From Candidatus Kapaibacterium sp. (GTDB lineage: Bacteria > Bacteroidota > Ignavibacteria > Kapaibacteriales > UBA961): a stretch of 39,300 nt of DNA. The position numbers and the translations under genes were made by a program. Location of the stretch: assembly GCA_017302855.1 (NCBI GenBank), contig JAFLBY010000010.1:1-39300 (forward strand), read 5' to 3'. Position 1 is the stretch's first letter. Every line of letters starts with the position of its first letter. Shown here piece after piece: positions 16,882 through 39,300 of this stretch. The notes under the pieces were generated by a model, which saw nothing but the letters and a program-made list of their open reading frames with translations, had not been told where the DNA came from and did not search any database.

Positions 16882-17112
16882 GAGCCAACGACCAACCCGC
16901 CCGAGCCGACGACCAAACCGCCCGAGCCGACGACCAACTCGACCGAGCCGACGACCAAACCAATCGAGCCGACGACTAACTCGACCGAGCAGAAAACCAA
17001 CTCGACCGAGCAGAAAACCAACCCGATTGAGCAGAAAACGACCCCGATTGAGCCGATGACGACCCCGATTGAAGCGATGACGACCCCGATTGAAGCGATG
17101 ACGACCCCGATT
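16882..17112. repeat. 21-bp minisatellite, block 1 (11 units)
   Basis: Eleven tandem 21-bp units with no spacers drift gradually from a GAGCCGACGACCAA type to a GAAGCGATGACGACC type. Because 21 is a multiple of three, frames on both strands stay open as apparent heptad proteins (EPTTKPP or VELVVGS). These have no start context, and I treat them as by-products of the repeat. The block is much richer in G/C than its surroundings. Confidence 0.9.
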
Positions 17113-17117
17113 GAAGT

Positions 17118-17285
17118 GCTTCAAGACCCCTCGTAGTCGCTTCAAGACCCCTCGTAGTCGCTTCAAGAGCCCTCGTATTCGCTTCAAGAGCCCTCGTAGT
17201 CGCTTCAAGACCCCTCGTAGGCGCTTCAAGACCCCTCGTAGGCGCTTCAAGACCCCTCGTAGGCGCTTCAAGACCCCTCGTAATC
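17118..17285. repeat. 21-bp minisatellite, block 2 (8 units)
   Basis: Eight tandem 21-bp units, each beginning GCTTCAAGACCCCTCGTA with small changes, start 5 bases after block 1. Read on the other strand each unit begins GAAGCG and shares ACGA and TT at the same positions as block-1 units, so the two blocks look like diverged inverted copies. No spacers are present, so it is not a CRISPR array. The open frames across it are not counted as genes. Confidence 0.9.
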
Positions 17286-17399
17286 GGCTCAATTGGCAAA
17301 AAAATGGCGTTTTTTGGCAAAAAAGGGAAAAAGTTGAGATAAAAAGCCACGTTTTCGGTACAAACGATTTGTTTTGATATACTGTGGGATTATTCCATC

Positions 17400-17617: not shown

Positions 17618-20404
17618 ATGAACAACTTAGCACAAACAAAAGATGCCCTTGCTGCATTAGCACAGCAATTCCGTTCCTACAATTATAAATCACTCAATGA
17701 ATCGCAAGTACGCAAAAGTTATATTGATGAATTTTGGAATATTCTCGGATGGAATACTGCCGACATACGCCAAGTGCAAGTAGAGACAAGAGATAGGAAC
17801 AACAAAAAACCCGATTACAGATTTTTAGTGCAAAATAAAACGGCATTTTTTGTCGAAGCAAAAAAACCGTCCGAAGACCTCATGAAAAATAGCGAACATA
17901 TTTTTCAGGCAAAATCCTATTGTTGGTCTGGTAATGTGCCGCTTGTGGTGCTCACCGATTTTGAGGAGTTCCGCCCCTTCAAATGCGTCAATCAACCCGA
18001 TAAAAATAAACCCAAAGACGGCATCATAAAACAATTGGATATGACTTTTGAACAATATCCTGACCGCGCCGAGGAACTCTTGCTCCATTTCGGCTATGAA
18101 TCCGTCGTCGGCGGTTCGCTTGCGCAATTATTACAATTGGCTAAAGTCAAAGACCAAGATCGCGTGGACAGAGTATTTTTAAAACAATTAGCAGAATGGA
18201 GAAAAGTACTTGCAGAAAAAGCCGCGCTTGTCAATACATTTCACAGCAGCAATGAACTTGCAGAAGCAGTGCAAAGAATTTTAGACCGTTTGGTGTTTTT
18301 AAGGATTCTCCAAGATCGCTCCATCGAAGACAAAGACCATTTGCGCACCATAGCCGACACAAAAAAACATGCCTACAAAACATTTGTGGAATTATGCCAA
18401 ACATTTTCCCATACCTATAATGGACTTATTTTTAATGCCCATCCATTGAGCGAATCCATCACCATACATGATTTGGATTTTAAGCCCATAGTGAAGGAAT
18501 TATTGCCCGATGAATCGCCATATCGTTTCGATGAAATTCCCGTGGAAGTTCTCGGCACTATTTATGAGCGTTTTTTGGGCGATGAAATTATTTTGCAAGG
18601 GCGCAGTGCCATCGTCGAAACCAAACCCGATGTGCGCAAAGCCGGAGGTGTCTATTATACGCCTCAATACATTGTCGAATATATTGTCAATAATACCGTT
18701 GGCACATTATTAGCCCAATGCAATCATCCAAAAGAAGTTGCGGCGCTGACTATTTGCGATCCTGCTTGTGGCTCGGGGTCTTTTTTGCTCGGCGCATTCG
18801 ATGCACTCATAGCCTGGCATGAACAATACTTTGAGCAGCACCCCGATGAATGGAAAGAAAAATCCGGTAAATCATTTATTGAGCTTGCTTTTCGCGATTC
18901 ATACAATAAAGTCCGGCTCACAGCCGAACAAAAAGGACGCATTGCTAAAAATAATCTCTTTGGTGTGGATTTGGACAGACAAGCAACCGAAGTCACGCAA
19001 ATGTCGCTCTATATTAAAATATTGGAAACTATTGCCGAAGAGCCATCCATCACTATCGGTTATAGAAATGCTATTTTGCCCAAATTATCCGACAATATTA
19101 AACATGGTAATTCTTTGGTGGATGTGGATTATTATGATATGTTCCCCGAAGAACAACATAATACCATTCAATCACAGATTCGCCCTTTCAATTGGAAACA
19201 TTCCTTCCCCGCTATTTTTAAAAAAGGTGGCTTCGATGCGGTTATCGGTAATCCGCCGTATGTTAGGAGTCAGTCTATTGACGGATTGATAAAGAATTAT
19301 CTAACCAATAATTATAAGACAGCATCATACCAACCTGATGCTTTTTCATTTTTTATTGAGCAAGGAATAAAGATTCTGAAATCTGAGTCAAATTTTGGAT
19401 ATATTATACCTAATGGAATATTAACAAATACATATTACGAAAAATTAAGGAACTACCTTCTTGATGAAACTTCGATTGTTACAATATTAAACATGAAGAG
19501 TGGAGTATTCGACAATGCCGCAGTTGACACATCAATTATAATTCTTAAGAAACCATATATTCAGAATAATTTAATAAAAATCAAAGAGATTCAAGGTGAT
19601 AAAAAAGCCAATATTAACCAAGATTATAGGCATATTGACCAAGAGTTAATCAAAAGCTTAAAAGGTATGGTTTTTAATACAGGATTGGATAACAACCTCA
19701 CAGATTTAATCAATAAAATTAGCATAAACAAAAATAGAATATCTGAATATTGTGATGTCAAAGCAGGTATGAAAGTTAGAGGAGAATTCATTGCAGAGTA
19801 TAAAAAAGATGAAAGATATAAAAAATATATCCAAGGATCTAGTGTAAGACCATATTTAATTATCAATAAGAATTTGTGGGTTTGTTATGACAAAGATTTA
19901 GAAAGTTTATATACAAATCAAGCATTTAGAGATGAAACTATCTTCTTATCACAGGAAAAAATTCTAATTCGGCAAGTAATGGGTAAAGAGAGAATATATG
20001 CAAGTATAGATACCGAACAATTCTACACGGATCAATCAATATACAATGTAATCTTGAAAGATAACATATTATCAGCAAGATACATTTTAATGATTATAGT
20101 ATCAAAATTAATGTATTTTTACTTTTCAAACACATTATCAGATAGAAAAGAGACGTTTCCTAAAATAAAAGGGGTTCAAATTCTAGATTTGCCTGTAATT
20201 ATACCTAATGAGAATCAACATAAAATAGCTTATGACCTCGTTCAAACGATGTTAGACTTACACAAAACGAAGGAAGGAGCGAGCGGTGAGAAATTAGAGC
20301 AGATACAAGCCCGCATCAGCCACACCGATGACAAGATCAACCGCTTGGTCTATGAATTATATGAGCTAACCGACGAGGAAATCCGCATAGTGGAAGGAGT
20401 GTGA
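17618..20404 (+). CDS. Type IIG (Eco57I-like) restriction-modification enzyme
   Basis: One 928-residue chain joins nuclease, adenine-N6 methyltransferase and DNA recognition. An HsdR_N-like PD-(D/E)xK nuclease motif is at the N-terminus: PD at 65-66 and FFVEAKK with E80 and K82. A helical linker follows. The methyltransferase core has motif I DPACGSG (381-387) and motif IV NPPY (545-548). The target-recognition region is C-terminal, ending with ILDLPVIIP and a helical coil. Such enzymes cut outside an asymmetric site and protect it by methylation, so no separate methylase is needed. From about residue 550 to 885 the DNA is clearly poorer in G/C than on either side, suggesting a replaced specificity domain. 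A KAP-like NTPase gene follows after 36 bases. Confidence 0.88.
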   Translation: MNNLAQTKDALAALAQQFRSYNYKSLNESQVRKSYIDEFWNILGWNTADIRQVQVETRDRNNKKPDYRFLVQNKTAFFVEAKKPSEDLMKNSEHIFQAKSYCWSGNVPLVVLTDFEEFRPFKCVNQPDKNKPKDGIIKQLDMTFEQYPDRAEELLLHFGYESVVGGSLAQLLQLAKVKDQDRVDRVFLKQLAEWRKVLAEKAALVNTFHSSNELAEAVQRILDRLVFLRILQDRSIEDKDHLRTIADTKKHAYKTFVELCQTFSHTYNGLIFNAHPLSESITIHDLDFKPIVKELLPDESPYRFDEIPVEVLGTIYERFLGDEIILQGRSAIVETKPDVRKAGGVYYTPQYIVEYIVNNTVGTLLAQCNHPKEVAALTICDPACGSGSFLLGAFDALIAWHEQYFEQHPDEWKEKSGKSFIELAFRDSYNKVRLTAEQKGRIAKNNLFGVDLDRQATEVTQMSLYIKILETIAEEPSITIGYRNAILPKLSDNIKHGNSLVDVDYYDMFPEEQHNTIQSQIRPFNWKHSFPAIFKKGGFDAVIGNPPYVRSQSIDGLIKNYLTNNYKTASYQPDAFSFFIEQGIKILKSESNFGYIIPNGILTNTYYEKLRNYLLDETSIVTILNMKSGVFDNAAVDTSIIILKKPYIQNNLIKIKEIQGDKKANINQDYRHIDQELIKSLKGMVFNTGLDNNLTDLINKISINKNRISEYCDVKAGMKVRGEFIAEYKKDERYKKYIQGSSVRPYLIINKNLWVCYDKDLESLYTNQAFRDETIFLSQEKILIRQVMGKERIYASIDTEQFYTDQSIYNVILKDNILSARYILMIIVSKLMYFYFSNTLSDRKETFPKIKGVQILDLPVIIPNENQHKIAYDLVQTMLDLHKTKEGASGEKLEQIQARISHTDDKINRLVYELYELTDEEIRIVEGV

Positions 20405-20440
20405 GGAGATGGGTTGGAATTGTAATTTAATGATTTACTG

Positions 20441-22360
20441 ATGGGAAGCTATATGAATATAGAGCAATTATTGAAAGTTACCACTAATTTCCTTGAGAAC
20501 AAGTTTCAAAATTATGCAATCGCAATTAATGGTGACTGGGGCAGTGGCAAAACATTCTTTTGGTATAATACGATTACTGAAAAAATTAAAGAACGAAAGT
20601 CAATACCAATTTATGTTTCTGTTGGCGGCATTGAAAACATGGAGGTCTTTGAGTCAAAACTTCTTGAAGCACTTTTATTAAACATCAATCAAGACACCGA
20701 ACATAAAAAATTTTTAAAGTCCTTTAGTGGGCCAACAAAAAAAATCACACAATCAAACAATTCTTCGTTAAAAGAAAATCAACGACTCATAATTTCATTA
20801 GTAAAAAATATTGGAATATATTGTATAGATTACTACATAAGAGAAAGAAAATGTAATAACGTTGTTCTATGTATTGATGATCTTGAGAGAACAGAACTTA
20901 AATACGAACAACTGTTTAGTTATTTAGACAGCATCATACAAAGAACGCAGATAAAGATTATTGTTTTAGTTAATGAATCGTCGATTAATTCAGAAGATAG
21001 CTATAAAAAAAATAAAGAAAAACTGATTCGTTTTACATATCACTTCAAACCTAACTACGATGAAGTATTTAGCTCAATCTATAAAAACCTTGAAAACATT
21101 TCAGTAAAAGTTGATTTCCTAAAGGAGTATGAATCATATATTATAGATTTATTTAAAGAATACAATCTCAATAATGTAAGAACTTTACTATACTTTGTTG
21201 ATTGTTTGTTATATATTTACAGCTATATTGATAAAAGCAATGATAATGATACTTCATTTAAAAGTATTATTCTTCTCACATTAATACTAAGTATAGAGAC
21301 AAAACAAGGTAAGCTGACGATGGATGATGCGGGACACAGTAAAAATTTAAGCTCTATATCGTTCAGTTTTATGAGAAGCAGAAGACTAAACACTACACCA
21401 ACAAAGAAAATTTCTGAAACTCAGAAAGCAATACAACAACACGTTGCGGATGGTCTTGGTAAAAACCACAATTTTGATTATGCAGATGAAATATGTCGTA
21501 ATTATTTGCAGAATTACATTCATCACTATTTTTTTTATGATTCAATTTACCAATATATCTTGATTGGTTATCTTGACAAAGAAAGTTTGAATAGAGAAAT
21601 ACAGAATCATTCAAAAACAAAACTATTACATGAAGATATATGGGATAAATTAGTTTCTTTTGAATATGGCGAACTGGAAAAAGAGTCAATCGATAGGATT
21701 ACTGATGAATTTCTCAAATTTTTACAAGTTGGACTTTACCAAAAGTATGTAATCTTGGAGAGCACAAGAATACTATCAGTTTTATTAATTAACAACTTAA
21801 TTCAAAATAAAAAAGACAAGATACTAACTTCCTATGAAAACGCAGTAAACGCACTACCTGTTGAGGTTTTAGATGTCTATGAAGTGTATCACGAAGGTAA
21901 TGATAATATTGTTCTTCCCCACGTACAAACTATGATTAATAGAAGAATTGAGAAAGAAGATTCAAACACTGATCTTGCTAAAAAAGAACAGTTCATTTCA
22001 CTATTACGTAATGAAATGTCTGATGAAGAGAGAGAAAACTTTGCTTCTGTATTTTATACATGGGATAACTTTCACAAAGCAATTCAGCCAAAGGATATTG
22101 TCAGTGAATTACGACTTTCCGAAGATAAAAATATAGTTTTCCTTCGTAAATTATTGCAATCAAAGTATAATTGTCAGAACATTAACCAAGTTCGCCCAGA
22201 TGATAAAGATTTTTTAACAGATCTCTATTTTTCATTAAAAATTGAGAATATAGTTTCTCAAGGCCAAAAATTTTACTTCTTAGATAAATTAAAAAAAGAG
22301 TTGGAGAAAATCCTCACGATCTATGGTGTAGATATAAGTAATGGTGACCCGTATCTATGA
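20441..22360 (+). CDS. KAP-like P-loop NTPase beside the R-M enzyme
   Basis: A 639-residue protein with Walker A GDWGSGKT (31-38) and Walker B VVLCIDDLE (141-149), the latter ending in the DDLER form common in KAP-family NTPases. KIIVLVNES at about 165 fits a sensor-1 strand and NNVRTLLYF near 247 the C-terminal helical region of the ATPase. Residues 330-639 are helical and charged with no recognised domain. I see no membrane segments, unlike classical KAP proteins. KAP-like NTPases occur in several anti-phage systems as sensor or motor parts. Its position 36 bases after a type IIG gene suggests a shared transcript. The specific function is unknown. An alternative ATG is at 20453. Confidence 0.7.
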   Translation: MGSYMNIEQLLKVTTNFLENKFQNYAIAINGDWGSGKTFFWYNTITEKIKERKSIPIYVSVGGIENMEVFESKLLEALLLNINQDTEHKKFLKSFSGPTKKITQSNNSSLKENQRLIISLVKNIGIYCIDYYIRERKCNNVVLCIDDLERTELKYEQLFSYLDSIIQRTQIKIIVLVNESSINSEDSYKKNKEKLIRFTYHFKPNYDEVFSSIYKNLENISVKVDFLKEYESYIIDLFKEYNLNNVRTLLYFVDCLLYIYSYIDKSNDNDTSFKSIILLTLILSIETKQGKLTMDDAGHSKNLSSISFSFMRSRRLNTTPTKKISETQKAIQQHVADGLGKNHNFDYADEICRNYLQNYIHHYFFYDSIYQYILIGYLDKESLNREIQNHSKTKLLHEDIWDKLVSFEYGELEKESIDRITDEFLKFLQVGLYQKYVILESTRILSVLLINNLIQNKKDKILTSYENAVNALPVEVLDVYEVYHEGNDNIVLPHVQTMINRRIEKEDSNTDLAKKEQFISLLRNEMSDEERENFASVFYTWDNFHKAIQPKDIVSELRLSEDKNIVFLRKLLQSKYNCQNINQVRPDDKDFLTDLYFSLKIENIVSQGQKFYFLDKLKKELEKILTIYGVDISNGDPYL

Positions 22361-30975: not shown

Positions 30976-31653
30976 ATGTTAGGACTATTTAAAAAGACTA
31001 GTTGGAAAATTGACGGAAAAGCCTTTGACTTTTTTCGACAAGTCTTTATGCAGTTGCCGAGTGACTTTCAGTTTTTATTGGACGGACTTGACAAAGGGCT
31101 TTACAGAAAGTTCTCAGTAAATCACGCGAAGAAAGGACACTTCTATTCAATCGGCTTTGACCCTTCGCAATCAGCCAAGTCAATGACCAAAGGTAAGCAA
31201 TTTGAATTGGAGAATATTTTCATTAAACAAAATGGACAAACATATCCATTGAATATTACAATTCATGAAGGACTTTGGATAGGTTTTGAAATTGAGAAAA
31301 ACATTTTGGACTTCAAGAACTTTCAAATTGACTTATCATCATTTAAGAAAAGTAAAAGTAAGTTTGCCGTAGATAAAAAAATTGAAAAACTCATAATTGG
31401 TTTGACTTGTGAGCAACTTGACTTGACAAACCTTGGAGAATTTGATGTTAATGGCAAGACTTACTACCCAATCAAAGACCTTGAAGATGGCAACTACATT
31501 GCAATTGATAGCAAAGGACAAGTATTCGGCTTAATTCACGACCCAAATAAAATTGAACTCATAAATAAATCAGTGAAAAAATTTGTTGACGTTGTTAATG
31601 GCGGGAGGTTTGATTTTGATAAATATCTAAATGGAGAAGATGGCAACACATAA
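30976..31653 (+). CDS. Orphan protein, cassette-like gene
   Basis: I do not recognise this 225-residue soluble protein. It starts MLGLFKKTSWKID, has a FQFLLDGLDKGLYRKF helix, a charged middle (KKSKSKF) and a C-terminal part with YYPIKDLEDGNYIAIDSKG and FGLIHDPNKIELI. That last part resembles the beta-rich core seen in SMI1/KNR4-like immunity-type proteins, but the similarity is weak. The ATG at 30976 is preferred because upstream codons come from repeat B. Its stop codon lies inside the next repeat B copy, so the gene is tightly framed by repeats. Confidence 0.55.
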   Translation: MLGLFKKTSWKIDGKAFDFFRQVFMQLPSDFQFLLDGLDKGLYRKFSVNHAKKGHFYSIGFDPSQSAKSMTKGKQFELENIFIKQNGQTYPLNITIHEGLWIGFEIEKNILDFKNFQIDLSSFKKSKSKFAVDKKIEKLIIGLTCEQLDLTNLGEFDVNGKTYYPIKDLEDGNYIAIDSKGQVFGLIHDPNKIELINKSVKKFVDVVNGGRFDFDKYLNGEDGNT

Positions 31654-31789
31654 CAACACCTACCCCAAAAGCGTGACTTCGTGCTTCTATGACAGTTTTG
31701 TAATACGGAAATTTCAGTTCTCAGCATCAACATCTGTGGTAAAAATCCGCCTTCTGCAAGCGGCAAAACGATGTGCGTAATCATAGAAC
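31647..31789 (+). repeat. Repeat B, copy 3 (143 bp)
   Basis: Third copy. It begins inside the last codons of the preceding gene (…ACACATAAC) and ends CATAGAAC 17 bases before the next ATG. Its near-identity to copy 2 shows a recent duplication, or strong constraint. Confidence 0.92.
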
Positions 31790-31806
31790 GACACCAACAA
31801 TTAAAT

Positions 31807-32406
31807 ATGACCGAACAAAAAAACATATTCCTTGACAAAGATTTAAGATGTGGTGGCTTCTATGAACTTTCTATTCAAGTTTGCCCAAGTATAGAAAACA
31901 ACCCAATAAAACTTTACACTGACTTTATTTGGACACTGAACAATGTTTCGGGACCTTTTGACGAAGGCTTTAAGACAATACAGGCAGACATTGAAAATAT
32001 TCAACACCGTGGACTTATTAGTCTTGACAATTATGTCATTCCTTTTATGACTTACAATATACGAGAAGACGAGCCTATCGAAACTGGATTCAATTGGTTT
32101 GACATTTGCTTTTACACGGCAGCAATTGAAAAGGTATTTGGAGCTGAGTATCAAACTTGGACAGAAAATCCCAAAGTACCGAAACAGTTAACCAACTTTT
32201 TCACAAGTATATTGAAAGCCTTGTATAAAATTTACCCTTTTGAACTTGCGATGTTAGACTTTGAAGTTTCCGGACAATATTACTTTGAAGATTTAATGAA
32301 ACCGACTAACACTTGGGCTTATTCTGCGTTTTTCGTGGGACAGACTAAATATGACTTAGTCGCAGTTGAAAACAGAAAATTTGTAAAGACCATTGAAGAA
32401 CTATAA
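31807..32406 (+). CDS. Orphan protein, cassette-like gene
   Basis: I do not recognise this 199-residue acidic protein. It begins MTEQKNIFLDKDLRCGGFYEL, has an ELSIQVCPSIE strand, a NWFDICFYTAAIEKVFG helix, a FTSILKALYKIYPFELAMLDFEV segment and a YSAFFVGQTKYDLVAVE strand near the end. It has no signal or membrane segment. It could be an immunity or structural protein of a mobile cassette, but there is no direct evidence. The start at 31807 is the first ATG after repeat B copy 3. Downstream, 300 bases contain no other full gene. Confidence 0.55.
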   Translation: MTEQKNIFLDKDLRCGGFYELSIQVCPSIENNPIKLYTDFIWTLNNVSGPFDEGFKTIQADIENIQHRGLISLDNYVIPFMTYNIREDEPIETGFNWFDICFYTAAIEKVFGAEYQTWTENPKVPKQLTNFFTSILKALYKIYPFELAMLDFEVSGQYYFEDLMKPTNTWAYSAFFVGQTKYDLVAVENRKFVKTIEEL

Positions 32407-32455
32407 TGGAAACGAAGACTAAACAAACGGAAAAAAGTTTAACGCAATCACAACT

Positions 32456-32566
32456 ATGCTTGAAATTCGAGACAAAATAGGTCTTGAAATAATGAATATG
32501 ACTTATGAAGAAGAACGACCCTATTTGGACAAACTTCTTGTACAAGGACAAACCAAAGCGAAGTAA
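32456..32566 (+). CDS. Possible 36-residue small protein
   Basis: A short frame (MLEIRDKIGLEIMNMTYEEE…) starts 50 bases after the previous stop. Its amphipathic, charged make-up is protein-like, recalling N-terminal helices of small antitoxin-like proteins. There is no ribosome site and no known match. It may be a remnant. Confidence 0.25.
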   Translation: MLEIRDKIGLEIMNMTYEEERPYLDKLLVQGQTKAK

Positions 32567-32627
32567 TGCACTTCTGCCAATGGTCTTTATGCGTAGATGC
32601 ATGACGCTAATACAGAACCAAAGAGTT

Positions 32628-32653
32628 TGATGTATTTGGTACAAGATACATCA
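32628..32653. promoter_or_regulatory. Inverted repeat upstream of the MarR gene
   Basis: TGATGTAT and ATACATCA are perfect 8-bp complements around 10 bases, 55 bases before the marR-family ATG. The dyad suits a dimeric regulator. Confidence 0.45.
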
Positions 32654-32687
32654 TAAGGTTTGGACATTCAAGAAAAATTTCTTAATT

Positions 32688-32704
32688 TTGTTGCGTATTT
32701 AACA
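32688..32704 (+). promoter_or_regulatory. 17-bp operator-like repeat, copy 1
   Basis: TTGTTGCGTATTTAACA, immediately before the MarR-family ATG (32708). An identical 17-mer is at 33161, before the DoxX gene. TGTT and AACA form short inverted arms. It is a candidate autoregulatory site of the MarR protein. Confidence 0.6.
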
Positions 32705-32707
32705 GTT

Positions 32708-33145
32708 ATGGCAAAAACATTTAAATTTGAAGATTCATTTGGACGTATTCTTGGAGTTGCTCATACTTCTATGTTTAGATATTTGAGCAAATTAATGAAA
32801 GACCAAGAACTACCTATAACACCTGAACAATTCAGTGTGTTAAGTCATTTATGGCAAAAGGACGGTTTACAACAAAGCGAATTGGCGATATGCACTAACC
32901 GAAATAGAGCAAATGTGACGCGGATCATTGACATCTTGGAAAGAGAAGGTATCGTAGAACGCAGAGATGATGAAAGTGATAGAAGAGTGTTTAGAATTTA
33001 TCTGACTGACAAAGGAAAATCTCTTAGAGAAGTTACGGCGAGATGTGCCGAACAAACAATCAATGACTCACTTAAGGGTTTGACAAAAGAAGAAATAGAT
33101 ACTTGTGTAAAGGTCTTACTACAAGTAAAAAGCAATGTTGGCTAA
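32708..33145 (+). CDS. MarR-family transcriptional regulator
   Basis: A 145-residue winged-helix repressor. The recognition region SELAICTNRNRANVTRIIDILEREGIVER and the wing RRDDESDRRVFRIYLTDKG are typical, with dimerisation helices at both ends. Cys at positions in the helix (ICTNRN) and near residue 112 (ARCAE) could sense oxidants, but this is speculative. I start at the ATG at 32708; a TTG at 32660 lies in frame, before the operator-like repeat. A matching 17-bp repeat before doxX suggests control of the downstream DoxX-pirin-SRPBCC genes. Confidence 0.86.
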   Translation: MAKTFKFEDSFGRILGVAHTSMFRYLSKLMKDQELPITPEQFSVLSHLWQKDGLQQSELAICTNRNRANVTRIIDILEREGIVERRDDESDRRVFRIYLTDKGKSLREVTARCAEQTINDSLKGLTKEEIDTCVKVLLQVKSNVG

Positions 33146-33160
33146 AAAATTTTACCCATA

Positions 33161-33177
33161 TTGTTGCGTATTTAACA
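33161..33177 (+). promoter_or_regulatory. 17-bp operator-like repeat, copy 2
   Basis: Identical TTGTTGCGTATTTAACA, followed by A so that TTGTT/AACAA become 5-bp arms. It lies 23 bases before the DoxX ATG. Confidence 0.6.
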
Positions 33178-33200
33178 ATTAACAATTTAACATTAATACC

Positions 33201-33575
33201 ATGACAACAAAAACAACAAACATCATCAACTGGAGCTTAGCCGGAATCGTCGGCTTCATTTTTATTAGTAGCGCCATGAGCAAATTTTTTGGAGGCGAAG
33301 AAACTTTACAAATGGCGAAAGGAATTGGACTAAGTGCAGAATCTTTTCAAGTCATTGGCATAGTAGAATTTGTGAGCGTGATGCTTTTTGTAGTGCCACG
33401 AACAGGAATAATTGGAACACTCTTATTAGCTGCATATATGGGTGGCGCAATAGCAATACATATATCACATGGTCAATCAATAATTGCACCCGCTATCATT
33501 GAAGCTATAATTTGGATAGCGGCTTTAGTACGATTCCCCGAATTGAAACATCGCATTTTACATTCAAACAAATAA
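33201..33575 (+). CDS. DoxX-like membrane protein
   Basis: A 124-residue protein with four predicted TM helices: SLAGIVGFIFISSAMSKFF, a VIGIVEFVSVMLFVV helix, a GTLLLAAYMGGAIAIHI helix and a C-terminal AIIWIAALVRFPEL helix. The first TM with SKFFGG and the GAIAIHISHG turn are the usual DoxX-like (DUF4267/DoxX_2) pattern. These proteins are linked to quinone or thiol redox balance. Here it follows MarR and precedes a pirin gene by 9 bases, an arrangement common in redox-responsive operons. Confidence 0.84.
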   Translation: MTTKTTNIINWSLAGIVGFIFISSAMSKFFGGEETLQMAKGIGLSAESFQVIGIVEFVSVMLFVVPRTGIIGTLLLAAYMGGAIAIHISHGQSIIAPAIIEAIIWIAALVRFPELKHRILHSNK

Positions 33576-33584
33576 GATATACCA

Positions 33585-34514
33585 ATGAATAGGCGAAATT
33601 TTGTCTTAAAATCATTACTTACTGTGGGAGGTCTCATCCCATTTCGTAAAACATTTTTATCAACAACTTCATATCAAAAGACAATGAACAAAAAAATCTC
33701 AAAAAAACATGATCTCAAGTTTAAGCAAGCATTTCCCGGTTTAATGGGCGTTGATATTATGGCACATGCCTATCCTATTGAACCCTTTTTAGTATTTACC
33801 GAATTTCGAATGACAAGACCTGTTTTTGGTCCACATCCTCATGCAGGAATTTCTGTGATGACCTATATGTTACCAGATAGTAAAGAGAGCTTTATCAATC
33901 GAGATAGTCAAGGTGATTTCAGCTATATAGAGCCGGGTGGAATGCATATTATGCAAGCGGGAAGTGGTATGCACCATGATGAATTTCCTAAAGTTACAGG
34001 TAATGAGTCACATGGATTTCAAATATGGATAAATCATGCAGATAAAAATAGATTTGTTGAACCAAAATCAATGCATGCAAGTGCTCATGAAGTTCCCGAA
34101 AAAATAACAGATGATTATAAAGTTAGAATTGTGCATGGTGAATTTGAAGAAATGACAACACATTACAAAATGGTTACTGCTGTAAATTTGTTTCACATCT
34201 TTTTACAACCCAATAAATCTATTTCTTTGGATGCCATGCCAATGGCATTCGTTTACGGACTTAATGGTAAAGGACAAAGCGAAGGAGAAACTATTCAAGC
34301 CCAAACTTTAGTACATTATTCATTAGAGGGAAATAAAGTAACTATCAATGCTTCAGACGAAGGGCTGGAATGTATGTTCGCAACCGGAACACCACACAAT
34401 GAACCAATTACCTATGGCGGTCCATTTGTTATGACAACTGCTGAGCAAATGGCAGAAACACAACGCCGTTTTTCGAGGGGTGAAATGGGAAAATTAGAAC
34501 CTTACAAAGGATAA
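33585..34514 (+). CDS. Pirin-family protein with Tat-like signal
   Basis: A bicupin of 309 residues. Metal ligands match pirin: HPHAG (H84, H86), then GSGMHHDEF with H131 and E133. Pirins act as quercetinase-like dioxygenases or redox regulators with Fe. The N-terminus is unusual. MNRRNFVLKSLLTVGGL carries a twin-arginine motif followed by a hydrophobic stretch, so the protein may be exported by the Tat route, whereas most pirins are cytosolic. A later in-frame Met (residue 34) would give a cytosolic form. It lies between DoxX (9 bases) and an SRPBCC protein (32 bases). Confidence 0.86.
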   Translation: MNRRNFVLKSLLTVGGLIPFRKTFLSTTSYQKTMNKKISKKHDLKFKQAFPGLMGVDIMAHAYPIEPFLVFTEFRMTRPVFGPHPHAGISVMTYMLPDSKESFINRDSQGDFSYIEPGGMHIMQAGSGMHHDEFPKVTGNESHGFQIWINHADKNRFVEPKSMHASAHEVPEKITDDYKVRIVHGEFEEMTTHYKMVTAVNLFHIFLQPNKSISLDAMPMAFVYGLNGKGQSEGETIQAQTLVHYSLEGNKVTINASDEGLECMFATGTPHNEPITYGGPFVMTTAEQMAETQRRFSRGEMGKLEPYKG

Positions 34515-34546
34515 ATTAAAGTATTAACTCAAAGTATGAGAAAATA

Positions 34547-35086
34547 ATGTTGAATAATAACAACAATTCATCAATCATCAAAGGACGTCACATGTGGATT
34601 ATTCTGATTATCATCATTGTGGGCATCGGAATTTTAAGTAGAACCAGCTTTGAAATTCGCGACGATATTGAAATTAATGCATCAACAGATAAAGTCTGGG
34701 AAACAATTATTGATTTTGAAAATTACAAAAATTGGAATTCGCAATTGATGTACATAGGTGGTAAGGTAGAGCCAAATGGAAAACTTCATTTAAAACTTGC
34801 TGTATCAGGATCCGATCCCTATGAATTTAAGCCGAATATTTCATACTGGCAAGAAAGAAAGGCATTTGCTTGGATTGCAAAAACGGGGTTACCACGAATT
34901 TTTGACGGAGAACACTTTTTTGAACTCAATGATCTTGGAAATGGTAGAACACTTCTTACAAACAGAGAAGAATATCGAGGAGTTTTATCACAAATGTTTC
35001 GACAATTGCCGATGATGAAAACAGCACCCGAAGGATTTAAAAAAATGAACATTGAGCTTAAACATTATATTGAGTCACAGAATTAA
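34547..35086 (+). CDS. Membrane-anchored SRPBCC-family protein
   Basis: A 179-residue protein with an N-terminal TM helix (residues 17-31, WIILIIIIVGIGIL) and a START/SRPBCC domain typical of polyketide cyclase/dehydrase-like proteins: DIEINASTDKVWETIIDFENYKNWN, then WIAKTGLPRIFDGEHFFELN and a long C-terminal helix (GFKKMNIELKHYIES). These bind hydrophobic ligands. It is the last gene of the MarR-DoxX-pirin unit. Confidence 0.78.
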   Translation: MLNNNNNSSIIKGRHMWIILIIIIVGIGILSRTSFEIRDDIEINASTDKVWETIIDFENYKNWNSQLMYIGGKVEPNGKLHLKLAVSGSDPYEFKPNISYWQERKAFAWIAKTGLPRIFDGEHFFELNDLGNGRTLLTNREEYRGVLSQMFRQLPMMKTAPEGFKKMNIELKHYIESQN

Positions 35087-35325
35087 ACCCACATTTAGAT
35101 AAGTATAGAGATTCCATGATTGACTTTTTTATTGGAAAGCATTAGAAATACTATAAACTCCAAAAATAACTTTGTTTCCATTTTATAAGTGGGATATATT
35201 TCACGGAGTAATCAAAGCACAGTGTATTACATGAGATCTTGAACGATTCTCGACAAAGCGCAAACCACCAATCTGTTTTTTGTCATCATAGCACTATTAT
35301 CTCACTCTGAGAAGTGTCACTACGT

Positions 35326-35385
35326 CAGCACTTTCCCCTCCTCTTTCATATCTTTTGGATAGTTAGCCAATTTTTTGTAGTTTTG
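35326..35385 (+). repeat. Repeat C, copy 1 (related to repeat A)
   Basis: Begins CAGCACTTTCCCCTCC, also present at 35943, and ends AGCCAATTTTTTGTAGTTTTG. The latter half aligns with the promoter half of repeat A (AGCCAA…TTTTGTAGTTTTG). It brackets the Cass2-like gene with copy 2. Confidence 0.75.
35354..35385 (+). promoter_or_regulatory. Bacteroidota promoter inside repeat C copy 1
   Basis: TTTG (35354-35357), 20 bases, TAGTTTTG (35378-35385): the same boxes and spacing as in both repeat A copies. The predicted start site is about 45 bases before the Cass2-like ATG. Confidence 0.6.
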
Positions 35386-35437
35386 AAGAAATAACAAACG
35401 AAACAAGAATTAGTGGTAAGTATAATATAATTGAATA

Positions 35438-35926
35438 ATGGAACCAAGAATACAGACATTATCAGAAAAAAAATTGGTCGGACAAAGTCTTGCAATGTCA
35501 CTTGCTGACTATAAAGTTGGAGAGCTTTGGAGAAGTTTTATGCCAAGAAAAAAAGAAATAACAAATATCTTGACAAATGACCTTATTTCCTTAGCAATTT
35601 ACGAATCAACATATTTTGCAGACTTCAAACCGACAAACGAATTTGAACGTTGGGCGGCAGTTGAGGTTGCGGACTTTGATAATGTGCCAAATGAAATGGA
35701 AACTATTCTTTTACAAAGCGGGCTTTATGCGGTTTTTGATTACAAAGGTTTAAATACGGATAAGTCAATTTTTCAATATATTTTTGGGACATGGTTACCA
35801 AGTTCGGACTACATATTGGACGATAGACCGCACTTTGAGGTATTGAGCGAAAAATACAAAAACAATGACCCGACATCAGAAGAAGAAATTTGGATTCCGA
35901 TAAGACCAAAGAGCACCAATCACTAA
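35438..35926 (+). CDS. Cass2/GyrI-like effector-binding protein
   Basis: A 162-residue stand-alone effector-binding domain. PRIQTLSEKKLVGQSLAMSL, the GELWRSFMPRKKEI helix, FERWAAVEV, the SGLYAVFDYKG turn, FQYIFGTWLPSS and the late Glu-rich EEEIWIPI motif are those of the integron-associated effector-binding protein family (Cass2, Pfam PF14526), related to the AraC-type GyrI-like fold. Cass2 proteins bind cationic drugs. The gene is flanked by the two repeat C elements. Its family is typical of integron cassettes, so it supports the cassette-like reading of this region. Confidence 0.8.
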   Translation: MEPRIQTLSEKKLVGQSLAMSLADYKVGELWRSFMPRKKEITNILTNDLISLAIYESTYFADFKPTNEFERWAAVEVADFDNVPNEMETILLQSGLYAVFDYKGLNTDKSIFQYIFGTWLPSSDYILDDRPHFEVLSEKYKNNDPTSEEEIWIPIRPKSTNH

Positions 35927-35942
35927 CAGACATTAAGAAAAA

Positions 35943-35992
35943 CAGCACTTTCCCCTCCCCTAACGTTTTGATTGTACAGCCAATTTTTGTAG
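35943..35992 (+). repeat. Repeat C, copy 2 (promoter box altered)
   Basis: Begins CAGCACTTTCCCCTCC and ends AGCCAATTTTTGTAG. The -33 TTTG is present, but the -7 position reads TAGGAGAG, so the promoter is broken. No gene follows directly. ACTAACAG (35922-35929) overlaps the stop codon of the preceding gene. Confidence 0.65.
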
Positions 35993-36325
35993 GAGAGATG
36001 ACGATTGCGTCAAGAAGGGAGGCATAGGTCTATAGATTTACAAAAGGACTTTATTGACAAACTATGCTTGCATTGAGTAACTGCGGTAATTTGCTTCTAT
36101 TAGTTGCTATAATGACAAGAACTGTTAACAAACCTCTTACAATTGAACGAGAGTATAATTTACTTCCCACTCTATCAATGAGAGTAAATTTTTTGTATTT
36201 TTGCCCTTATCTTGTACAATGTGACGGGCTGTAGGGTTCATTTAACTGATTATTACTTCATCACGCTTTTGTATTTTTGCAATGGATACAGAGTTTCGGC
36301 GCAATAGAGAGTGATATTATAACTT

Positions 36326-36420
36326 GTGCTTCTATTCACATTGAGTTCTTGGCTGACAGTTTAATGCTCCGAATTGAAAATCAACGAAACTCAATCCCCC
36401 ACTGCGCCATGCCATAGAAC
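36326..36420 (+). repeat. Element D, degenerate relative of repeat B
   Basis: Shares GTGCTTCTAT, then (after about 19 extra bases) GACAGTTTAAT, and the end CATAGAAC with repeat B copies 2 and 3. The middle is diverged. AACGTTTGGA at 36430 resembles AACGTTTTGA after repeat C copy 2. It stands directly before the motor operon. Confidence 0.4.
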
Positions 36421-36452
36421 ATTGGGGGCAACGTTTGGACAACTTTGATTGC

Positions 36453-36483
36453 TTTAAACGATAGTGCAAGAAATTTAACTTTG
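36453..36483 (+). promoter_or_regulatory. Candidate promoter of the motor operon
   Basis: TAACTTTG (36476-36483) matches TAnnTTTG. TTTA at 36453-36456 stands 19 bases upstream as a one-mismatch -33 box. The predicted start site is about 20-25 bases before the ATG at 36513. Confidence 0.5.
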
Positions 36484-36512
36484 ACAACAAACTAACGGAA
36501 AAATACAAAACA

Positions 36513-37925
36513 ATGAAACTAGAAATAGAATATATTCCTTATGGACTACTAATTGTGTCGTTCATCTACAGCGAATACTACTTAAGAAAAGCAAAACGAA
36601 CACCGGATAAAATCAATCCATACCTTCTTGAATCTATTCCACAAGTATTTCCAACACTTGGAATTTTAGGAACATTCATGGGAATAGCATATGGACTTTA
36701 CTTTTTCGACACCGATAATATGAATCAAAGTATTCCAGTTCTATTGGAAGGATTAAAAACTGCCTTTATTGCCTCTATTGCTGGAGTTTTAGGACTTTTA
36801 TATTTTCAGAAACGGTTAGAACGTATTCAATGGAAATATGATAAAGATAAAGGGATAACAAACGATGAATTAAAATCCTTAAATGTATTAATTGATATAA
36901 CAAAAAAATCATCTCAGGAGAATTCAGATAATTTCAGAATACTGAACAATTCTCTTATTGGTGATGCAGATGAAAGTTTGGCAACTCAATTTGCTAAAAT
37001 GAAAAACCAAATGACTGAGCAGACAGATAAACTTTCAAAAATTCAATCCGCGCTTGGAGGTGATAATGAAACCAGTCTATTGACGCAGATTCAAAAACTA
37101 CGAGCTGAACAGAATGAGTATGCAAAACTAATTTCTACTAATTCAACATTCATTGTTGACACAATGAATAAGAATAATGAAATCATAAAAACTAAGTTTG
37201 ACGAGTTCACAAAACTTCTGACAGAAAACAACACGAAAGCATTGGTTGAAGCTATGGAAAAAGTAATCACAGACTTTAACTCTCAAATGAATGAACTTAT
37301 TCAGCGTTTAGTAAAAGAGAACTTTGAAGAGTTAAACAATAGTGTCAAAAATCTTAACGATTGGCAACGAACAAATAAAGAACAAGTTACAATACTTATC
37401 AGCCAATTTAATCAGGTTACATCGAACCTTGAACTTACTTCAAAGAATATTCAAGAAATTTCGAGAAACACAGAATCACTTACTAGTAGTAATTCTTCAT
37501 TAGGAAAAATGATTACAGAGCTACAAGCAGTTCTAGTTGAGGATAGAAAATTCACTTCCGCAATTGACAACTTACATAAGGCGACCAAGAGCGTTGAAAC
37601 ATCGAGTACGGAACTTGCTAATTATATGAAAAAAGAGAAACGTTTTCAAGAATCCATCACACAACTTCTAGAAAAATTAAAGGAAATTGAAACAATAAAA
37701 GATACAAATAAGGAATTCTGGAAAGATATCGAGAATAAAATGAGTGAAGGAGTTTCAATAATTGCCAAAGGTAATGAGAAACTTGCAGCGGATGTTACCA
37801 AACTGGATAATGAATTTAAAAAACGCCTTAGCGAGAGTTTTATGAGTTTGGATAAAGTTCTTCAAGCGATGGTACTACAGTATCAAAAGAAAACAATCGA
37901 AGTTATTAACGAACGTAAGTTATAA
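36513..37925 (+). CDS. zorA: ZorA-like MotA/TolQ-family motor protein
   Basis: A 470-residue membrane protein. Hydrophobic segments lie at residues 8-22, 44-64 and 80-97. PTLGILGTFMGIAYGL and LKTAFIASIAGVLGLL are the pore-lining motifs of MotA/TolQ/ExbB proton channels. Residues 105-470 form a long, charged, coiled-coil-rich cytoplasmic tail, the mark of ZorA as opposed to TolQ or ExbB. The gene is followed after 3 bases by a MotB/OmpA-like protein and then by an HNH nuclease, the order of type II Zorya. In Zorya, the ZorA5B2 motor senses phage entry at the envelope and signals to a nuclease. Length fits type II better than type I. The name is by analogy. Confidence 0.75.
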   Translation: MKLEIEYIPYGLLIVSFIYSEYYLRKAKRTPDKINPYLLESIPQVFPTLGILGTFMGIAYGLYFFDTDNMNQSIPVLLEGLKTAFIASIAGVLGLLYFQKRLERIQWKYDKDKGITNDELKSLNVLIDITKKSSQENSDNFRILNNSLIGDADESLATQFAKMKNQMTEQTDKLSKIQSALGGDNETSLLTQIQKLRAEQNEYAKLISTNSTFIVDTMNKNNEIIKTKFDEFTKLLTENNTKALVEAMEKVITDFNSQMNELIQRLVKENFEELNNSVKNLNDWQRTNKEQVTILISQFNQVTSNLELTSKNIQEISRNTESLTSSNSSLGKMITELQAVLVEDRKFTSAIDNLHKATKSVETSSTELANYMKKEKRFQESITQLLEKLKEIETIKDTNKEFWKDIENKMSEGVSIIAKGNEKLAADVTKLDNEFKKRLSESFMSLDKVLQAMVLQYQKKTIEVINERKL

Positions 37926-37928
37926 TCT

Positions 37929-38636
37929 ATGGCTTCAAGTAAAAAAGACAATTACTGGATACCCCTTGCTGATTTAATGACTGTACTAATGGTTATTTTT
38001 CTTTTTATATCCATTTCATACATGATTGATGTAAAAAGTAAACAAGCTGAGCGTGATAAAATCTTTGAGGATTTTAAAGAAACAAAAATTGATTTACTTA
38101 AGGATTTACAAACAGAGTTTAATGATGATTTTAGAAAAGAGAAATGGAATGCTGTGTTGGATAAAGACCTGTCCATTAAATTTGTTAATGAAAGTGTTTT
38201 ATTCGATTACAATAAAAGTAATTTGAAGTCAGAGTTTCAGACAGTATTGACAGATTTCTTTCCAAGGTACTTAAATATTCTGATGAAACCAAAATATATA
38301 GACAAGATTGCAGAAGTTAGAATTGAAGGGCATACAGATATTCAAGGTGATTATATCTATAACTTACAGTTATCTCAAGATCGTACAAGAAATGTTATGA
38401 AATTTCTTCTGAATCTTGATTACTATAAAGAATTAGAAAATGCAGAACAAAACAAGTTACGATTTTGGTTAACTGCAAACGGACTTTCATTCGGAAGAAC
38501 CTTAGATGTAGATGGGAACCTAACAGAGTATTCAAACCAACCACCGGATGATCTTAAATGTAGGCGAGTAGAATTTAGAATTGTAACAACGAGTGATAAA
38601 ATTGTCGAAGAAGCCATAAAACAAATTAGTAAATAA
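37929..38636 (+). CDS. zorB: ZorB-like MotB/OmpA-family protein
   Basis: A 235-residue protein with one TM helix near the start (residues 11-33). It contains PLADLMTVLMVIFLF, and its Asp15 sits where MotB and ZorB carry the proton-accepting Asp. A short linker leads to a C-terminal OmpA-like peptidoglycan-binding domain: VLFDYNKSNLK (91-101), GHTD (134-137), LSQDRTRNVMKFL and the last strand RRVEFRIV (212-219). This is the stator-anchor partner of the ZorA-like protein upstream, with a 3-base gap. The next gene begins 1 base after its stop, so all three are one operon. Confidence 0.78.
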   Translation: MASSKKDNYWIPLADLMTVLMVIFLFISISYMIDVKSKQAERDKIFEDFKETKIDLLKDLQTEFNDDFRKEKWNAVLDKDLSIKFVNESVLFDYNKSNLKSEFQTVLTDFFPRYLNILMKPKYIDKIAEVRIEGHTDIQGDYIYNLQLSQDRTRNVMKFLLNLDYYKELENAEQNKLRFWLTANGLSFGRTLDVDGNLTEYSNQPPDDLKCRRVEFRIVTTSDKIVEEAIKQISK

Positions 38637-38637
38637 A

Positions 38638-39300
38638 ATGATTTACGATTTCTCTGATCTTAAATTTTTTGTAAAGAACCAATTAGGTGTTGATTCCGAC
38701 TTTGTCAAATCCACATTCAAACCAATTACTGAAACATTTACGAGTACAGAACTTGAAAAGAATGTCGAGTTAAGGAATGAAGGAATTTACTTTATTGATG
38801 ATAAAGGTAATAGACATAAAGGATTTCTTTACATTGAATCCGGCTATAGTAGGATAACAGCTCAACAGAATAACTGGAGAACTATTGTTCCGAAATTTCA
38901 TATTGCAAACTGTGAAACAATAGAGCAAAAAAAACGAGTGAAAGATTTTAATGGTAAATATGTTTTCTCGAATGAAACTGTTAGGATGGAAGATATTGAT
39001 GGTAAAACAAAAGAACTTGAAATTTGTGAGAACTGCGTTAAGATACAACGTCCTATGGTAAGAAGCAGAATGAAAACTTCTGAATATAAACAAGAAGTAA
39101 TTCTTAATTGTATTCATGAAGGAAATTTCAGTGACAACGATTTACCAAAATCTATTCCGACAAACTTTTGGGGCTACACTCATGATTGGGATGAAACCAG
39201 TAGAAACTATAGAATAAAACAACAATTTACATGTGAGGAGTGCGGCATAAATCTCAATTCAAACTTTGTTAACGGCTTCTATTTGGAAACTCATCACATG
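38638..39300 (+). CDS. zorE: ZorE-like HNH nuclease (truncated by window edge)
   Basis: The frame opens with an ATG 1 base after the zorB-like stop and stays open for 221 codons to the window end. Near the end C199-x2-C202 and H219-H220 (ETHHM) match the zinc knuckle and first active-site His of an HNH nuclease; the rest of the motif is outside. A separate C130-x2-C133 pair and an N-terminal 190-residue region precede it. Type II Zorya has ZorE, an HNH protein thought to nick DNA, as its third gene, so position and motif agree. Because the gene is incomplete, the assignment is provisional. Confidence 0.62.
   Translation, partial: MIYDFSDLKFFVKNQLGVDSDFVKSTFKPITETFTSTELEKNVELRNEGIYFIDDKGNRHKGFLYIESGYSRITAQQNNWRTIVPKFHIANCETIEQKKRVKDFNGKYVFSNETVRMEDIDGKTKELEICENCVKIQRPMVRSRMKTSEYKQEVILNCIHEGNFSDNDLPKSIPTNFWGYTHDWDETSRNYRIKQQFTCEECGINLNSNFVNGFYLETHHM

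What the first reader, a model, noticed from the sequence alone, without database searches (positions are those of the whole stretch)
36513..39300. Zorya type II-like motor-nuclease operon
Three genes with gaps of 3 and 1 bases encode a MotA/TolQ-like channel with a long coiled-coil tail, a MotB/OmpA protein with a membrane Asp, and an HNH protein. Zorya type II is known to have this gene content. The host appears to be an FCB-group bacterium, and the HNH gene carries a 190-residue leader with an extra CxxC pair, so this may be a divergent subtype.
Basis: partly seen in the sequence, partly recalled or inferred. Interest (0 to 1): 0.78.

Follow-up and report, generated by a model that had tools for sequence, protein, structure and literature searches.

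The report
Ordinary Zorya type II defence operon
Three adjacent genes at the end of this contig encode a known bacterial anti-phage system, Zorya type II, in which a membrane motor is thought to sense infection and license a DNA-nicking enzyme; this is another member of that family, not a new kind.

Summary
Window 36513-39300 carries zorA (470 aa), zorB (235 aa) and the first 221 codons of zorE, with gaps of 3 and 1 bases, cut off by the contig end. PADLOC's type II models fit all three (ZorA2 366 bits, ZorB2 243, ZorE2 122), far better than flagellar or envelope families. The nearest solved structure to ZorA and ZorB is the type II ZorAB complex 8VVI. The ion-carrying Asp (ZorB D15), peptidoglycan-site residues (H135, R212) and ZorE residues shown essential in E. 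coli (H88, Y180, H220) are present. The "190-residue leader with an extra CxxC" is not divergent: it is the N-terminal DUF8245 zinc region present in every ZorE I aligned. This ZorE lies on a well-populated, mostly Bacteroidota-phylum branch that PADLOC already models (PDLC00644). The third gene cannot be completed from this contig. Another contig of the same genome (C58) starts with a ZorE C-terminal half holding the rest of the HNH motif, but the 42-base overlap is only about 81% identical, so it is another allele or a second copy. zorABE is AT-rich, absent from a close relative, and probably acquired. New member of a known kind; low interest.

The parts
36513..37925 (+). zorA (type II), 470 aa: MotA/ExbB-like channel subunit with a long cytoplasmic tail
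   Evidence: PDLC00635 ZorA2 365.6 bits, E 1.2e-109; PF01618 above cut-off; best PDB match 8vvi_F, type II ZorA
37929..38636 (+). zorB (type II), 235 aa: single-helix stator with D15 and a periplasmic OmpA/peptidoglycan-binding domain
   Evidence: PDLC00641 ZorB2 242.5 bits, E 1.2e-72; best PDB match 8vvi_A E 2.9e-36, D15 aligned to D21; H135 and R212 match E. coli H141 and R215
38638..39300 (+). zorE (type II), first 221 codons, cut by the contig end inside the HNH motif
   Evidence: PDLC00644 ZorE2 122.3 bits, residues 2-220 to profile 7-214 of 267; NF041791 ZorE E 5.8e-14; H88, Y108, Y180 and H220 match E. coli H90, Y109, Y189 and H226
38899..39036 (+).
   Evidence: invariant columns of A1; the aligned E. 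coli H90 is essential and predicted to bind Zn (PMC13192584)
39232..39300 (+). start of the HNH (beta-beta-alpha-metal) domain: C199xxC202 ... H219-H220
   Evidence: invariant columns; H220 aligns with the likely catalytic H226 of E. coli ZorE
35927..36512 (.). intergenic leader of the operon; 36061-36369 recurs at 92% identity in a variable stretch of a same-genus genome
   Evidence: no Rfam family and no promoter signal above chance

Best explanation
This is a Zorya type II anti-phage operon, zorA-zorB-zorE, of the branch common in the phylum Bacteroidota. Five ZorA and two ZorB would form an inner-membrane, ion-driven motor, with ZorB anchored in peptidoglycan and a bundled ZorA tail reaching into the cytoplasm. 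Envelope disturbance by an infecting phage would engage ZorB, ions would flow past D15, ZorA would turn, and the tail would recruit or license ZorE, an HNH nickase, to cut DNA. Shown here: gene content, order, family membership, and conservation of motor, peptidoglycan-site and (in part) nuclease residues. Inferred from experiments on relatives: complex formation, ion flow, nicking and defence. The trigger and the ZorA-to-ZorE signal are unproven even in the model type II systems, as far as the papers I read show.
For: All three genes hit their type II models best. The nearest solved structure to ZorA and ZorB is the type II ZorAB complex 8VVI. Relatives with zorA-zorB-zorE in the same order and closely packed occur at L035-L041, in Prevotella and Spirosoma plasmids and in the annotated E. 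coli type II system L093. Key residues are conserved, and each of those E. coli residues was checked against the published numbering. zorABE has 31.5% G+C against 35-41% for most of the contig, apart from the other defence patch at 34%, and a 98.5% identical flank in a same-genus genome lacks it. The window also holds other defence genes: a type IIG restriction enzyme at 17618-20401 and a KAP ATPase of candidate system PDC-S49 at 20441-22357.
Against: zorE is incomplete in the window, so the catalytic Asn/His half of HNH is not seen in cis. All three proteins score far below NCBIfam's equivalog cut-offs (124 of 700, 112 of 400, 52 of 600 bits), which were apparently set on close relatives of the enterobacterial proteins. 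Two peptidoglycan-site positions differ from E. coli (S143 to D137, an Asp as in type I; R230 to E227).
Confidence: 0.95

Rival explanations
1. An envelope or motility motor (TolQR, ExbBD, MotAB or a gliding/T9SS motor) that happens to lie beside an HNH gene.
For: Pfam recognises only the generic MotA_ExbB and OmpA domains. The genome has three other MotA/ExbB-family genes.
Against: ZorA2 and ZorB2 models score 366 and 243 bits, whereas the best non-Zorya NCBIfam hits are about 22 bits (SMC, for ZorA) and 44 bits (YiaD, for ZorB). The long ZorA tail and the linked ZorE are not part of envelope motors. The three other MotA/ExbB genes lie elsewhere, in open frames of 277-297 codons.
Confidence: 0.02
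2. A decayed or recombined Zorya II locus: the zorE reading frame is broken or replaced at the point where the contig ends.
For: In the whole genome the ZorE model finds one N-terminal part (C2) and one C-terminal part (C58:1-261) and nothing else. The 42 bases they share are only about 81% identical, so they are not one continuous sequence.
Against: Both parts are open and well conserved, without stops. Changes in the overlap are mostly synonymous or conservative. Strain mixture in a draft assembly gives the same picture.
Confidence: 0.1
3. A distinct, divergent Zorya II subtype defined by the N-terminal leader with an extra CxxC.
For: The full-length relatives of this ZorE are shorter than E. 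coli ZorE (251-282 against 367 aa) and form a separate branch (support 100/99).
Against: The leader and its H-C-CxxC site are shared by all the ZorE aligned, including E. coli's. The branch is populated by many Bacteroidota-phylum genomes and is already a PADLOC ZorE2 model.
Confidence: 0.03

Closest known systems
Zorya type II of Escherichia coli (zorA2-zorB2-zorE; L093, NZ_CP026578.2; homologue studied experimentally from ATCC 8739)
   Same: gene content, order, close packing, motor Asp, peptidoglycan His, ZorE N-terminal Zn site and HNH residues
   Different: ZorB about 32% identical; ZorA 470 against 550 aa; E. coli ZorE has a long C-terminal extension absent from this branch's full-length relatives
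Zorya type II ZorAB of Sulfuricurvum kujiense (PDB 8VVI)
   Same: closest solved structure to both ZorA and ZorB; D15 aligns with D21
   Different: ZorA longer here (470 against 378 aa)
Bacteroidota-phylum Zorya II operons (L040 in G386, L035-L038; Prevotella plasmid pE2-28, L094)
   Same: same ZorE2 model PDLC00644, same gene order; L040 is closest (ZorB 61%, ZorE 48% identical)
   Different: ordinary sequence divergence only
Zorya type I (zorABCD)
   Same: homologous motor; the nearest ZorB (62%) lies in a Flavobacteriia zorB-zorA-zorC-zorD locus, L007
   Different: no zorC or zorD at this locus; the effector is ZorE

Membership tests
Zorya type II | ZorA: MotA/ExbB-family channel with a long cytoplasmic tail | tested here: met
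   PDLC00635 365.6 bits, tail included; PF01618 over cut-off
Zorya type II | ZorB: one membrane helix with an ion-binding Asp, plus an OmpA-like peptidoglycan-binding domain | tested here: met
   PDLC00641 242.5 bits; D15 aligns with D24 of E. coli and D21 of 8VVI; H135 and R212 conserved
Zorya type II | ZorE: N-terminal DUF8245-type region with a zinc site | tested here: met
   H88, C92, C130, C133 invariant in A1 and aligned with E. coli H90 and C94 and its CxxC
Zorya type II | ZorE: complete HNH nuclease motif | tested here: inconclusive
   first half present (CxxC, H219-H220); gene cut at 39300. The C58 fragment has the second half (N, H, CxxC) but is not the exact continuation
Zorya type II | zorA-zorB-zorE adjacent, co-oriented, without zorC/zorD | tested here: met
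   gaps of 3 and 1 bases; no ZorC/ZorD hit among the three genes
Zorya type II | NCBIfam equivalog cut-offs for ZorA2, ZorB2, ZorE | tested here: not met
   124/700, 112/400, 52/600 bits. These equivalog cut-offs appear to mark close relatives of the enterobacterial proteins; I do not treat them as defining the family
Zorya type II | phage defence requiring ZorA, ZorB and ZorE; ZorE nicks DNA; ZorA5B2 complex | not testable with these tools
   shown for relatives in PMC11890865
Zorya type I | zorC and zorD downstream of zorAB | tested here: not met
   the next gene is zorE
TolQ/ExbB/MotA envelope or motility motors | best profile match to those families | tested here: not met

The most novel reading that the evidence does not exclude
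The genome carries two ZorE alleles (C2 and C58), so that HNH halves can be exchanged between zorE copies, or the Zorya II operon is extended by the NERD-UvrD helicase that follows the C58 zorE fragment by 166 bases, a helicase-assisted variant parallel to ZorD in type I.
Probability: 0.04. Interest if true: 0.4.

Novelty: new member of a known kind. Interest (0 to 1): 0.12.

Why it matters
It adds a Zorya II operon in a draft genome of an FCB-group bacterium, and shows that the supposedly unusual ZorE leader is the conserved zinc region of the family. It changes no view of how Zorya works. Its modest use is in comparative work: the Bacteroidota-phylum ZorE branch lacks the C-terminal extension of E. 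coli ZorE, so it is closer to a minimal ZorE for biochemistry.

Tried and rejected
Reading past 39300: impossible, the contig ends there. Taking C58 as the missing end of zorE: rejected as an exact join, because the 42-base overlap has 8 differences; kept only as a sign of another zorE allele or copy. Proving that C2 and C58 adjoin through gene order in relatives: no relative had both flanks on one contig. Adding the NERD-UvrD helicase to the system: rejected, it is not beside zorE in the other genomes checked. An RNA element or clear promoter upstream: none above chance. A viral-contig search with the ZorE alignment could not run, as no stretch was conserved enough. I did not run a structure prediction: a truncated ZorE folded without an alignment would add little to sequence matches this strong.

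Full report
What is there. The window is one whole contig of a draft genome (G000:C2, 39300 bases; the genome has 298 contigs and is about 94% complete). At its right end three co-oriented genes lie head to tail: 36513-37925 (470 aa), 37929-38636 (235 aa) and 38638-39300 (221 codons, running off the end).

Identity. PADLOC profiles assign all three to Zorya type II: ZorA2 PDLC00635 365.6 bits (E 1.2e-109), ZorB2 PDLC00641 242.5 bits (E 1.2e-72), ZorE2 PDLC00644 122.3 bits (E 6.8e-36), the last over profile positions 7-214 of 267, i.e. all but the missing end. NCBIfam's best hits are likewise ZorA2, ZorB2 and ZorE, but far below its strict cut-offs. Among solved structures the best match of ZorA and of ZorB is the type II ZorAB complex of Sulfuricurvum kujiense, 8VVI.

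Working residues. E. coli type II proteins taken from L093 have the numbering used in the experimental papers: every residue I looked up agreed. ZorB D15 aligns with D24, which is required for defence (PMC11890865), and with D21 of 8VVI. H135 and R212 align with peptidoglycan-site H141 and R215; S143 is D137 here and R230 is E227. ZorE H88 aligns with H90, Y180 with Y189 and H220 with H226, all three needed for defence in E. coli (PMC13192584, a preprint).

The leader is not special. Region 1-190 of the third protein, with CENC at 130-133, aligns along its length with every other ZorE I compared. H88, C92, C130 and C133 are invariant in the seven sequences of A1 and have counterparts in E. coli ZorE, where this region is called DUF8245 and H90 is modelled in a zinc site. 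So the extra CxxC is a family hallmark. In trees of ZorE and ZorB the window falls outside the E. coli-Vibrio-Pseudomonas branch and among genomes of its own phylum; the ZorE split has support 100/99. Several forks are weak and some branches long, so I use the trees only for that statement. A sample of 396 genomes of the phylum gave 21 with a match to PDLC00644, about nine of them strong.

The missing end. In the whole genome the ZorE2 model finds only this gene and a fragment at the very start of contig C58 (bases 7-186, profile positions 204-263). That fragment reads SNYTNGYYLETHHIDGNPKNNDDTNLKCLCVLCHANVDKFH..., with the Asn and His of the HNH motif and the second CxxC. It overlaps the end of the window by 42 bases but with 8 differences (about 81% identity), mostly synonymous or conservative. 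So it is a homologous zorE end, not an exact continuation. Strain mixture in the assembly, a second copy, or a recombined gene would all fit, and I cannot choose. No second ZorB of this type exists in the assembly.

Surroundings. A same-genus genome (G001) has the left flank, window 31651-35915, at 98.5% identity but no zorABE there; beyond that point it carries other genes. The C58 core, from base 2287, also matches G001 at 98.6%, while the stretch before it (zorE fragment and NERD-UvrD helicase) has no match there. zorABE has 31.5% G+C and C58:1-2286 31.2%, against 35-41% for most of the neighbouring sequence. Both are therefore strain-variable, probably acquired segments. The helicase is not beside zorE in the other genomes checked. 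The window carries a second defence patch at 17618-22357, a type IIG restriction enzyme and a KAP ATPase of candidate system PDC-S49.

How it most likely works. By the experiments on relatives (PMC11890865), ZorA5B2 is an inner-membrane complex built like ion-driven rotary motors, peptidoglycan binding and ion flow are needed for defence, and ZorE is a nickase. I infer the same here from conserved parts. What triggers the motor and how its tail activates ZorE are untouched by this finding.

Verdict. A real, probably functional Zorya type II operon with a truncated third gene; a new member of a known kind, of low interest.

Noticed in passing
window 17618-20401 and 20441-22357: A type IIG restriction enzyme-methyltransferase (PDLC03604, 498 bits) followed by a KAP-family ATPase matching candidate defence system PDC-S49 (151 bits), at 34% G+C: a second defence patch on the same contig.
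   Followed up: partly
L034 (G000:C58) 1-261 and 431-2254: A ZorE C-terminal half at a contig start, about 81% identical over 42 bases to the end of the window, followed by a NERD-UvrD helicase (PDLC01087, 200 bits); neither is found in the same-genus genome G001.
   Followed up: partly
L007 1538-7242 (Flavobacteriia MAG, CANGHE010000073.1): A Zorya type I-like locus in the order zorB-zorA-zorC-zorD whose ZorA and ZorB are of the short type II kind (ZorB 62% identical to the window's), suggesting motors and effectors have been exchanged between types.
   Followed up: partly
L040 2923-4508: In the closest full relative zorA is split into two ORFs (314 and 165 aa), either a frameshift or a sequencing error.
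   Followed up: no
window 36005-36085: A short sequence of about 80 bases upstream of zorA that recurs at roughly 72-87% identity in about ten other places of the genome: a dispersed intergenic repeat.
   Followed up: no
window 16882-17286: A 21-base tandem repeat array (8 copies at 95% and about 9 at 84% matches) between genes.
   Followed up: no
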